In this document: positions 24,001 through 27,501 of the stretch, piece after piece
Position numbering within the stretch: position 1 is the first letter of the stretch
How the letters are laid out: every line of letters begins with the position of its first letter
Origin: an uncultured Bacteroidales bacterium
GTDB lineage: Bacteria > Bacteroidota > Bacteroidia > Bacteroidales > Muribaculaceae
Direction of reading: 5' to 3'
Assembly: GCA_902774055.1 (NCBI GenBank)
Contig: CACYGX010000013.1
Span: 116,695 to 180,694 of the forward strand
Length of the DNA stretch: 64,000 nt
Translations under genes and position numbers: made by a program
Notes under the pieces: model-generated
What the model saw: only the letters and a program-made list of their open reading frames with translations
Databases searched by the model: none
Told to the model about the DNA's origin: nothing

Positions 24001-25281
24001 TCACTGCCCGCGGGCATCGGTGGCTAGCAGGCGGTGCCCAATGCGGCAATAGATGCACTTGCGGGCCTCGCAGTAGTTGCGGCGCAACTCGATAAGGGCT
24101 TGGCTGGTGAGTGCGTCGTCGCACCTGAGGCCAGCATTGCGAAACAGGGTAACGATGCTGTTTTGCTCGGGGCGGATGTCCTCGAGCAGTGCTATGGCGC
24201 GGTCGGTCATCTGGTAGTCGTCGGTCATCTCGCCACGGGCGTAGTAGAGTGGGGCGACGGTGTTGATGAGCACGATGTCGATGCTGCTGTTGCTCAAGGC
24301 GCGGCCCGCGCTGGGCGACGGCTTGCCAAAGGAGTAATGCGTCGTCCAGTAACCGCTCAGCTCGATGTCAAACAGTTGCCTCAGCGCCTTGGTGTCGCTG
24401 GCGTTGAGGATGTCGTTCATCAGGTTGAAACCGCCCTGGACAAATTGTGCCAGCAGGGCGATGCGCCGATAGGGGAAATTCTGGGGGCGGCTGCGGAACA
24501 GGCGCCATGCCGAGCCCTCGATGGGACGTAGCGAGAATTTGTTGGCCAGGAAGGCATATTCCCGCATCAGTTGCTTGTAGTAGGTCTCGCTGTCGTATGA
24601 GCCGTTGAGCAACCCCGCCTGGCCAAAGAGCAGCGCCTCGACCTGGAGGATGGAGTCGCTGTGCTTGTGCAGCAGGCGCAGGGGGGTGACCCGTGCCAGC
24701 CGTTCAAAGGCATCGTTGTTGATGCCGAAGCCCAGCGTCCTGGCCAGCATCACGTAGCAGATGTCCTCCCAGCTGCCGTGATATCGGTCATAAAGTTCAC
24801 GCACGCGGTCCACCTTATTGTGCAAGCGCTCAAACGCCAGCGCCTCGATCCACTCGGTGATGGTGAGCGTGGGCACTTCGCCCATGCGGGCGGCACAGGG
24901 CAATTCCACCTTAGCGTTCACCAGTCGGTCATAGCACTCGTTGAAGCGCGGCGACACCCTCAGTTCCACCTGTGGGATGATTTCGCCGTTGATGCGGGTG
25001 ACAGGGGCGTCGTCCTTCTCGACGACGTGCAGGATGACGCTGTCATAGGCCGGGTCTTCGTCGTGATGGTGGCGTTTCCAGTCGCTGGCGCGCACATGGA
25101 CCTCGACGTTGCCCACCCACAGGTGCCCGTCAATCTCCACTTTGGCATTAAAAAAGTCGGGACCGGCGTCGGTGTTGAGCAGACCTGGGTCAATGACGCG
25201 CACACGGTGCCCGTCGTTGGTCACCATGTCCTCGCTGAGCCACAGCCTGTGCTGCCAGATGTATTGCAACAGTCCTTCCAT
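24001..25281 (-). CDS. DUF2851 family protein
   Basis: The 426-residue protein begins MEGLLQYIWQHRLW and continues with the DUF2851 signature (VIDPGLLNTDAGPDFFNAKVEIDGHLWVGNVEVHVRASDW...HDEDPAYDSVILHVVEKDD). The DF/VE/H arrangement in the N-terminal ~110 residues looks like a PD-(D/E)XK-type core, but that is inference. The C-terminus has CEARKCIYCRIGH, a possible Cys cluster. DUF2851 is common in Bacteroidetes, usually as a single gene of unknown function. I chose the ATG at 25281; the longer frame would start near the divergent promoter. Confidence 0.82.
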   Translation of the reverse strand: MEGLLQYIWQHRLWLSEDMVTNDGHRVRVIDPGLLNTDAGPDFFNAKVEIDGHLWVGNVEVHVRASDWKRHHHDEDPAYDSVILHVVEKDDAPVTRINGEIIPQVELRVSPRFNECYDRLVNAKVELPCAARMGEVPTLTITEWIEALAFERLHNKVDRVRELYDRYHGSWEDICYVMLARTLGFGINNDAFERLARVTPLRLLHKHSDSILQVEALLFGQAGLLNGSYDSETYYKQLMREYAFLANKFSLRPIEGSAWRLFRSRPQNFPYRRIALLAQFVQGGFNLMNDILNASDTKALRQLFDIELSGYWTTHYSFGKPSPSAGRALSNSSIDIVLINTVAPLYYARGEMTDDYQMTDRAIALLEDIRPEQNSIVTLFRNAGLRCDDALTSQALIELRRNYCEARKCIYCRIGHRLLATDARGQ

Positions 25282-25388: not shown

Positions 25389-27092
25389 ATGATTGGACAA
25401 CTGCGACACATCAAGCAATATCTCGATGGTCACTACACCGCCACGGTGGGGTGGGCTATCGTCTTGCTGGCCCTATGGCAACTTCTGGTAGCCACCTTTG
25501 GCGTGGACCTGTGTGACACGGGCTACTATCTCACCTTCTTTGACAACATCTTCAAGGCGCCGGCGTGTGTCGAGTACAATTTCATGTACTACCTGAGCGG
25601 TGTGGCGGGTGGTGCCCTTGATGCCTTGCTGCCCGAGGGCGGCAAGTGGATGGCGATGCGTGTCGCGGGTGTGCTGTGCAATGTGGGCATCATGGTGATG
25701 CTGGCTCATGGGCTGCGGCGCATCCTCCCCGCCAGTGCTGTCATTATCGGCTTCACGATGGTGGTGGCCTCGTTGGTGCAGTTCCCTTATACCTTCAACA
25801 ACGACTTGATGAGCGCCCTGCTCTGGGTCGCCGCGCTGGTGATGACTTTTAGGGGGCTGACTGATGGAAAATGGCACCACTTGCTCGTTGCGGGCCTGCT
25901 GGTGGGCGTGAACACATTTACCCGCATTCCTAACGTGCTGGCGGCGGGCTTGGCGGTGATGCCATTTATCGCCCACTTCTATAACAAGCGCCCGTGGCAT
26001 GAATGCTGGCGACAGTGCGGCCTGATGTTGGTAGGCATGGTCGTTGGCGCGCTGGCGGTCATCGGATTGATGACGGCGCTGGGGCATTGGGAACTTTTCA
26101 AGCAGAATATGGCCGATTTGCTGGGCGTGGCCACGGGCAGCAGTGGAGTGGCCAGCCACAATGCCGGAGGCCTGGTGATGGAGATGCTGGGCTTCTATAA
26201 GCAGTGTCTCATCGTGGGCATTAAGGCATATGGACTGTTGTGGGCATTCTGGGCAATCAGGCACTATGTCAGCGACTTTTTATTGCGCGCGCTGGCATGG
26301 CTGGTGGTTGCCGTCATGGTCATCTTCTTCATGTGGCACCAGTCCCACATTATGCACCCCCTGTGGGTGATGTGTGTGGCCGGACTCGCGTGGGTCATCT
26401 TCTATAGAGGAGTGGAGCGCGCCTTGGCGGCCTGGCTGGGCCTGTTCATGCTGCTGGTGTTCCCGCTGGGCAGCGACGGTGCGACTAACAACGGCGGCAT
26501 CATCGCTTGGATGGCGGCACCCGTGGCAGTGCTCTACTGGCAGCATCGTCACAACGTGGTCTTCCCGCTTGCCTTTATTGTGGTGGCCTTGTTGCAGACC
26601 TTGACTGTGGGCGCATACTTTGACGGCGGCCACCTGTGGCACAAGACGGCGAGCATCAACGACAGCCGCGCCGCCCTCATCCACACCACTCCCGAACGCG
26701 CTCAAATCATCAACGAGACCCTGCCCGAATTGACGCGATTCCTCAATGAGGGTGACACCCTGTTGTGCTACGGCAGCATTCCCATGATGAACCACCTGAC
26801 GCGCACCCTGCCCGCCATCGGTTGCTCGTGGCCCGAATTGCTTAGCGCCGAAGCCTTGACCGAGCGCTTGAACGCCTTGAATGACGGCCGTCCTGCTGTC
26901 TTGAGGCAGAAGTTCAATAATCTGGGCCCCTATTGGAGCGAGGCGAGCGACGCTTACCTCGAGGCCTATCTCATGACCGACGACAAGTTCCTGCAGCAGG
27001 ACAAGATGGATGCGCTCAACCGCTGGATGACAACAGCAGGTTATCACCCCATTTGGCAAAATCAATGGTTTGCATTGTATGTTGTTGATTGA
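25389..27092 (+). CDS. Polytopic inner-membrane protein, possible GT-C-type glycosyltransferase
   Basis: The 567-residue protein has about ten to twelve hydrophobic helices in residues 15-400 and a soluble C-terminal domain (about 410-567). An acidic pair near the first loop (FGVDLCDTGYYLTFFDN) matches the position of the catalytic aspartate in GT-C polyprenyl-phosphate-sugar transferases. The C-terminal region has YGSIPMMNHLTRTLPAIGCSWPEL. I do not recognise a named family, so GT-C is inference. The ATG at 25389 is used. An upstream TTG at 25368 lies between the -33 and -7 promoter elements and cannot be the start. Confidence 0.65.
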   Translation: MIGQLRHIKQYLDGHYTATVGWAIVLLALWQLLVATFGVDLCDTGYYLTFFDNIFKAPACVEYNFMYYLSGVAGGALDALLPEGGKWMAMRVAGVLCNVGIMVMLAHGLRRILPASAVIIGFTMVVASLVQFPYTFNNDLMSALLWVAALVMTFRGLTDGKWHHLLVAGLLVGVNTFTRIPNVLAAGLAVMPFIAHFYNKRPWHECWRQCGLMLVGMVVGALAVIGLMTALGHWELFKQNMADLLGVATGSSGVASHNAGGLVMEMLGFYKQCLIVGIKAYGLLWAFWAIRHYVSDFLLRALAWLVVAVMVIFFMWHQSHIMHPLWVMCVAGLAWVIFYRGVERALAAWLGLFMLLVFPLGSDGATNNGGIIAWMAAPVAVLYWQHRHNVVFPLAFIVVALLQTLTVGAYFDGGHLWHKTASINDSRAALIHTTPERAQIINETLPELTRFLNEGDTLLCYGSIPMMNHLTRTLPAIGCSWPELLSAEALTERLNALNDGRPAVLRQKFNNLGPYWSEASDAYLEAYLMTDDKFLQQDKMDALNRWMTTAGYHPIWQNQWFALYVVD

Positions 27093-27156: not shown

Positions 27157-27188
27157 TTTGGTCACGTCAAAAAGTCGCCGTATCTTTG
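27157..27188 (+). promoter_or_regulatory. Promoter for the tRNA-Phe gene
   Basis: TTTG at 27157-27160, a 20-bp spacer, TATCTTTG at 27181-27188: full consensus. The predicted start would leave about 8 nt before the tRNA 5' end. Confidence 0.7.
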
Positions 27189-27203: not shown

Positions 27204-27291
27204 GGTACCTTAGCTCAGTGGTAGAGCAGTGGACTGAAAGAGCAGTGGACTGAAAATCCGCGTGTCCCTGGTTCGATCCCCGGAGGTACCA
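27204..27291 (+). tRNA. tRNA-Phe (GAA) gene with an internal 16-bp tandem duplication
   Basis: Acceptor arms GGTACCT (27204-27210) and AGGTACC (27284-27290) pair perfectly, the D-stem is GCTC/GAGC, and the anticodon arm is GTGGA-CTGAAAA-TCCGC with anticodon GAA. The T-loop is TTCGATC and the discriminator is A; CCA is not encoded. A normal 72-nt body is interrupted because GAGCAGTGGACTGAAA occurs twice in tandem (27224-27239 and 27240-27255). This duplicates the D-stem 3' strand, base 26, the anticodon-stem 5' strand and the loop through base 37. The T-stem also has a T-C mismatch at pair 51-63. Either copy could close the cloverleaf, giving a 23-nt D-loop or a 16-nt insert after base 37. It may be non-functional. 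Confidence 0.85.
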
Positions 27292-27307
27292 CATCAAAAA
27301 CACGAAG

Positions 27308-27340
27308 CGACCGACTGCCCGCGCAGCCGGCCGTTTTTTT
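27308..27340 (+). terminator. Terminator after tRNA-Phe
   Basis: CGACCGACTGC pairs with GCAGCCGGCCG apart from two A-C mismatches and is followed by a T7 run. The mismatches make it weaker than a typical tRNA terminator. Confidence 0.55.
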
Positions 27341-27501
27341 GTTGGATATAAGGGAAATGGGCCTGACAATGATGATGATTGAAAAATCTTCTTGCTCTCA
27401 GCAGCTAATTCGCAAGTGAAAAAAGCGCCCCGTGGTGACATGGGACGCAGCTGCCTGCGAAATGGTCGCTAGGTGTCAAATCAAACGAGACGCAGGCTGT
27501 A

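What the first reader, a model, noticed from the sequence alone, without database searches (positions are those of the whole stretch)
27204..27291. tRNA-Phe gene with a 16-bp tandem duplication across the D and anticodon arms
GAGCAGTGGACTGAAA is present twice in tandem. All other cloverleaf parts (acceptor stem, D-stem, GAA anticodon arm, T-loop) are normal, apart from one T-stem mismatch (51-63). Depending on which copy is used, the extra 16 nt sit after base 37, the canonical intron position in other domains of life, or enlarge the D-loop to 23 nt. The promoter is perfect, so it may still be transcribed. Either this is a recently disabled gene, a tRNA that needs unusual processing, or an assembly error. 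The terminator also carries two mismatches, as expected of a decaying locus.
Basis: partly seen in the sequence, partly recalled or inferred. Interest (0 to 1): 0.75.

Follow-up and report, generated by a model that had tools for sequence, protein, structure and literature searches.

The report
Assembly glitch in a tRNA-Phe gene
The only phenylalanine tRNA gene found in this draft bacterial genome contains an exact 16-letter tandem repeat that would disrupt the molecule; related genomes have a normal gene there and their assemblies often break inside it, so the repeat is most likely an assembly error and not new biology.

Summary
The two "decay" signs are not decay: intact relatives share the T-stem mismatch and, in near-identical form, the terminator. 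tRNA-Phe is single-copy in the genus and only this genome has the insertion: 84 matches in 83 of 101 genomes, one of them inserted.

An essential tRNA without backup cannot simply be dead. No splicing endonuclease or RtcB was found, and the 88-nt RNA prefers a non-cloverleaf fold. The gene is a recurrent assembly breakpoint: contigs end inside it in five relatives, twice as overlapping contig pairs (99 and 74 bp), and one further relative has a different mid-contig corruption of the same gene. Two pieces sharing tRNA nucleotides 21-36, abutted without trimming, give exactly this sequence. Best verdict: assembly-join artefact (about 0.85); no reads were available to prove it. More interesting, nearby: arrays of gene cassettes ending in copies of the tRNA-Phe 3' end plus terminator.

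The parts
27204..27291 (+). tRNA-Phe(GAA) gene as assembled, 88 nt instead of the 72 nt of close relatives
   Evidence: Rfam RF00005 50.7 bits; ARAGORN Phe(gaa) only with introns allowed; 72-nt genes in relatives
27224..27239 (+). first copy of GAGCAGTGGACTGAAA (tRNA nt 21-36)
   Evidence: sequence, Tandem Repeats Finder
27240..27255 (+). second copy of GAGCAGTGGACTGAAA; absent from all 83 other tRNA-Phe matches in the genus
27158..27188 (+). promoter-like sequence: TTG at 27158-27160 and TATCTTTG at 27181-27188; the -33 TTG / -7 TAnnTTTG type of Bacteroidetes is recalled, not from a call
   Evidence: sequence; also present upstream of intact genes in relatives
27308..27341 (+). terminator-like hairpin and T run behind the tRNA
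   Evidence: sequence; same or near-same in intact relatives
24001..25281 (-). DUF2851 gene, conserved neighbour
   Evidence: Pfam PF11013, E 1.5e-142; matched beside tRNA-Phe in several relatives
25389..27092 (+). membrane protein with a PMT_2 (PF13231) match, left neighbour of the tRNA
   Evidence: matched in L046, L048, L051 and L053

Best explanation
The second 16-mer is an assembly-join artefact in a metagenome-type draft genome. tRNA-Phe is nearly identical among related species, so the assembly graph branches in it and contigs stop inside it. A left piece ending at tRNA nucleotide 36 and a right piece starting at nucleotide 21 share exactly 16 nt; placed end to end without trimming the overlap they give the observed sequence. 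The cell most likely has the ordinary 72-nt tRNA-Phe of its relatives. Shown: single-copy gene, insertion private to this assembly, breakpoint hot spot. Inferred: that co-occurring relatives cause the branch, and the untrimmed join itself.
For: Insertion in 1 of 84 genus matches and 1 of 393 order genomes. No second tRNA-Phe in the assembly. Contig ends inside the gene in G011 (two contigs overlapping exactly 99 bp), G082 (74 bp; its right contig starts at tRNA nt 22, one base from where copy 2 starts), G024 (nt 44), G051 (nt 41) and G059 (nt 49): 5 genomes against 0.45 expected over the 67 genomes with printed contig counts (Poisson 1e-4). G102 has a different mid-contig corruption of its only detected tRNA-Phe. 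G000 has contig ends 3 and 22 bp from two other tRNA genes and no 16S gene found, as in a metagenome draft. The 88-mer does not favour a cloverleaf.
Against: No reads or depth were available. The window contains no N. Exact tandem repeats are not in excess in the sampled 464 kb of G000: 5, this one included, against 7 in 220 kb of the single-contig relative G043. The other 42 tRNA genes are all called by ARAGORN with default settings. Contig overlaps seen in relatives are 74 and 99 bp, not 16, and no join was seen directly.
Confidence: 0.85

Rival explanations
1. The duplication is real and disables this gene, and an intact second tRNA-Phe gene lies in the unassembled part of the genome.
For: The draft is 94.29% complete in 54 contigs and its tRNA set is visibly incomplete: ARAGORN labels no tRNA-Ile, Gly(TCC), Thr(GGT), Val(GAC) or Ser(GGA), so a tRNA gene can be missing. 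Exact tandem repeats do occur in this genome.
Against: None of the 82 other genus genomes with a match has a second locus; single-contig G043 has one.
Confidence: 0.08
2. The duplication is real and the RNA is still used: either the 16 extra nt are tolerated in the D-loop, anticodon loop or between the stems, or an unknown activity removes them.
For: Three registers keep all stems, promoter and terminator are intact, and it is the only tRNA-Phe found while TTT/TTC make up 209 of 4,823 codons in eight window ORFs.
Against: Best cloverleaf -23.2 against -29.2 kcal/mol for the minimum-energy fold; no EndA-type endonuclease and no RtcB; not conserved in the genus; a 16-nt insert is far below the roughly 100-nt core of a group I intron (passage in PMC4033280).
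Confidence: 0.05
3. The duplication is a real scar of integrase activity at this tRNA, which is an insertion site for mobile DNA.
For: Copies of the tRNA 3' end plus terminator recur downstream in relatives, in one case beside a tyrosine integrase gene.
Against: Those copies begin at about the last 12 nt of the tRNA, some 25 bp past the end of the duplication; no extra copy was detected in the window; and the gene would still be lost with no replacement.
Confidence: 0.02

Closest known systems
Ordinary bacterial tRNA-Phe(GAA)
   Same: Sequence outside the repeat, synteny, promoter and terminator match intact congeneric genes
   Different: 16 extra nt across the D and anticodon arms
Contig-overlap (false duplication) assembly errors
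   Same: Exact tandem repeat inside a conserved element where other assemblies of the genus end
   Different: Assembler and reads are unknown here, and the overlaps seen in relatives are longer (74 and 99 bp)
tRNA introns at 37/38 (archaeal/eukaryotic; bacterial group I/II)
   Same: In one register the extra nt sit after base 37
   Different: Direct repeat of exon sequence, 16 nt, no splicing enzymes found, not conserved

Membership tests
functional tRNA-Phe | RNA folds as a cloverleaf | tested here: not met
   88-mer minimum-energy fold -29.2 kcal/mol is not a cloverleaf, best cloverleaf -23.2; single-copy 72-mer folds as one. Energy model only
functional tRNA-Phe | covariance-model score above the Rfam cut-off | tested here: met
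   50.7 bits against a cut-off of 29; intact relatives 61.4
enzymatically spliced tRNA intron | tRNA-splicing endonuclease in the genome | tested here: not met
   PF01974: no match in G000; found in 4 of 14 control genomes, the four archaea
enzymatically spliced tRNA intron | RNA ligase RtcB in the genome | tested here: not met
   PF01139: no match in G000; found in 9 of 14 control genomes
group I or II intron in a tRNA | catalytic intron RNA of about 100 nt or more | tested here: not met
   insert is 16 nt; the only Rfam gathering-level match in the window is the tRNA itself
tRNA pseudogene | another intact gene supplies the function | tested here: inconclusive
   none found in the assembly, but the draft is incomplete
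assembly-join artefact | reads support one copy only | not testable with these tools
   no reads held
assembly-join artefact | site is a contig breakpoint in related assemblies | tested here: met
   contig ends inside the gene in 5 genomes; 0.45 expected over 67
assembly-join artefact | general excess of exact tandem repeats in the same assembly | tested here: not met
   5 in 464 kb of G000, 7 in 220 kb of G043; not required by a single bad join

The most novel reading that the evidence does not exclude
A bacterium whose only tRNA-Phe is made from an 88-nt transcript with a 16-nt internal direct repeat, tolerated in the mature tRNA or removed by an undescribed, RtcB-independent pathway.
Probability: 0.03. 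Interest if true: 0.9.

Novelty: not a real feature. Interest (0 to 1): 0.12.

Why it matters
If the duplication were real and the gene in use, a bacterium would live with an interrupted sole copy of an essential tRNA, which would be a new kind of tRNA biology. As it stands it is a caution: in drafts of closely related species, conserved tRNA genes are assembly breakpoints, and a corrupted mid-contig tRNA gene (two seen among the 101 genomes of this genus, this one included) should not be read as a pseudogene or an intron without reads.

Tried and rejected
Intron reading: no splicing endonuclease or RtcB match in the genome, insert too short for a group I core, not conserved. Decay reading: T-stem mismatch and terminator are shared by intact relatives. 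Chimeric contig at the tRNA: not supported, because the sequence is collinear with G110 from the promoter through the first bases past the terminator and the left flank with several relatives; farther right the region is variable in the genus and synteny cannot test it. General excess of exact tandem repeats in this assembly: tested, not found. The order-wide search shows an insertion in 1 of 393 genomes, but I did not count how many of the other 392 have a tRNA-Phe that this pattern could see. In the genus, 18 of 101 genomes had no match to the pattern; a looser search of those 18 found something in 10, of which only some are tRNA-Phe. The contig-end count of 5 is a lower bound, since ends at high coordinates were checked only where the contig length was printed; the expectation of 0.45 uses rounded genome sizes and contig counts. 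Paper searches: only listings with abstract starts were seen; no listed title or abstract start reported a short insertion in a bacterial tRNA gene. Passages of PMC4033280 and PMC9179125 were read; no paper was read whole.

Full report
WHAT IS THERE. The window carries GAGCAGTGGACTGAAA twice in tandem at 27224-27239 and 27240-27255, inside a tRNA gene that Rfam places at 27204-27291 with 50.7 bits. Tandem Repeats Finder reports an exact repeat, and no exact unit-16 tandem repeat arose in 20 shuffles of the window. ARAGORN does not call the gene by default and calls tRNA-Phe(gaa) when introns are allowed.

IS IT THE ONLY tRNA-PHE? The genome (G000: 3.17 Mb, 54 contigs, 94.29% complete) has 43 tRNA hits. 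I fetched all 43 places; ARAGORN with default settings of them, all but this one, and none of the 42 is Phe. GACTGAAAATC occurs exactly once without mismatch in the genome. In the genus, a tRNA-Phe pattern that allows up to about 27 extra nt matches in 83 of 101 genomes, 84 matches in all; 83 are of normal length and one, G000, carries the insertion. The one genome with two matches, G011, has them on two contig ends that overlap exactly by 99 bp across the gene. G043, whose contig is 3,340,670 bases long, has one normal copy. In the order, 1 of 393 genomes shows an insertion, G000 itself. So the gene is normally single-copy and intact, and the duplication is private to this assembly.

NOT A DECAYING LOCUS. 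Intact relatives carry the same U-C mismatch at 51-63 and the same or nearly the same terminator. Several relatives keep the DUF2851 gene, and some the PMT_2-like gene, on the left. G110 aligns from the promoter through tRNA and terminator to the first bases beyond: 219 of 244 columns identical, the 16-nt gap being the only gap and the 9 mismatches all outside the tRNA.

CAN IT WORK AS DRAWN? Three registers keep every stem and place the 16 extra nt in the anticodon loop, in the D-loop or between the two stems (-21.8, -21.8 and -23.2 kcal/mol). The minimum-energy fold of the 88-mer is a different structure at -29.2, whereas the single-copy 72-mer folds as a cloverleaf. The genome shows no tRNA-splicing endonuclease and no RtcB. 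A passage of PMC4033280 calls bacterial tRNA genes uniform, with group I and II introns as the only significant exception. TTT and TTC are 209 of 4,823 codons in eight window ORFs, so some working tRNA-Phe must exist.

WHY AN ARTEFACT. The gene is where assemblies of this genus break. Contigs end inside it in G011 (a pair overlapping 99 bp), G082 (a pair overlapping 74 bp; the right contig begins at tRNA nt 22), G024 (ends at nt 44), G051 (nt 41) and G059 (nt 49); in G115 a contig starts 1 nt past the last tRNA base. Five genomes with an end inside a 72-bp gene compare with 0.45 expected over the 67 genomes whose contig counts were printed (Poisson 1e-4). Such exact overlaps are what de Bruijn-graph assemblers leave at a branch (recalled). 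G102 (96% complete) shows another corruption in mid-contig: tRNA-Phe cut at about nt 47 and fused to the terminator, with no intact copy found. In G000 itself two contigs end 3 and 22 bp from other tRNA genes (C11, C32), and no 16S gene is found, as is common in metagenome drafts. A left piece ending at nt 36 and a right piece starting at nt 21 share 16 nt; side by side without trimming they reproduce the observed sequence. That last step is inferred.

AGAINST THIS READING. I have no reads. The window has no N. The sampled 464 kb of G000 shows no excess of exact tandem repeats (5, this one included, against 7 in 220 kb of G043). The other 42 tRNA genes are called normally. The overlaps in relatives are 74 and 99 bp, not 16. 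The tRNA set of the draft is incomplete (for instance nothing labelled Ile), so an unassembled second tRNA-Phe is possible. I give a real duplication with a hidden second gene 0.08, a used 88-nt RNA 0.05, and an integrase scar 0.02.

SIDE FINDING. The last roughly 12 nt of tRNA-Phe plus its terminator recur elsewhere: 36 of 101 genus genomes have at least one match to the 68-bp stretch, the tRNA's own terminator included, and several (such as G009, G082, G085, G086, G104, G107, G112) have two to four further copies downstream of the tRNA on the same strand, kilobases apart. In the loci I fetched, by my reading, 9 of 19 copies away from the tRNA are preceded by GAGAC and 5 more by a one-letter variant; 5 are not. 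Between the copies examined lie genes for BspA-type leucine-rich proteins, several with dockerin-like ends, and in one case a serpin. In G019 one copy lies about 270 bp from a tyrosine integrase gene. This looks like repeated site-specific insertion of small cassettes at the tRNA-Phe 3' end. I did not test it further, and it may deserve its own study.

Noticed in passing
window 27278-27345; L200 (G009:C29), L202 (G019:C52), L203, L204, L213; G104:C4, G107:C18, G092:C21, G086:C54, G112:C12, G082:C47: Copies of the tRNA-Phe 3' end plus terminator stand one behind the other downstream of tRNA-Phe in relatives, separated by single-gene units (BspA-type LRR proteins, several with dockerin-like ends; a serpin). 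It looks like serial cassette insertion at the tRNA 3' end; G019 has a tyrosine integrase gene beside one copy.
   Followed up: partly
L258 (G102:C12, around 72221): tRNA-Phe truncated at about nt 47 and fused to the terminator in mid-contig, with no intact copy found in that 96%-complete draft.
   Followed up: partly
L052 (G007:C63, 27193-27311): The tRNA-Phe is followed directly by the distal half of the terminator, so the last tRNA base before the added CCA would be G instead of A.
   Followed up: no
L203 at 4113, L211 at 6300, L212 at 4148: Another group of terminator copies is preceded by a different shared sequence (ending GTGAGTCCCGGAGG or GTGAGTACCGGAGG), perhaps the ends of larger islands in tRNA-Phe.
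   Followed up: no
G000:C48:2443-2507 (L201): The only further copy of the tRNA-end/terminator sequence in the window's own genome, 88% identical, on a 5.1-kb contig.
   Followed up: no
window 27245-27279 and relatives: A pyrimidine-pyrimidine mismatch at T-stem pair 51-63 is kept in tRNA-Phe across the genus genes read here; in Escherichia coli this pair is a weak one that tunes EF-Tu binding (recalled).
   Followed up: no
L159 (JASBSU010000027.1, Hyphomicrobium MAG): The 5' half of a tRNA-Phe-like gene without a T-arm at the expected place.
   Followed up: no
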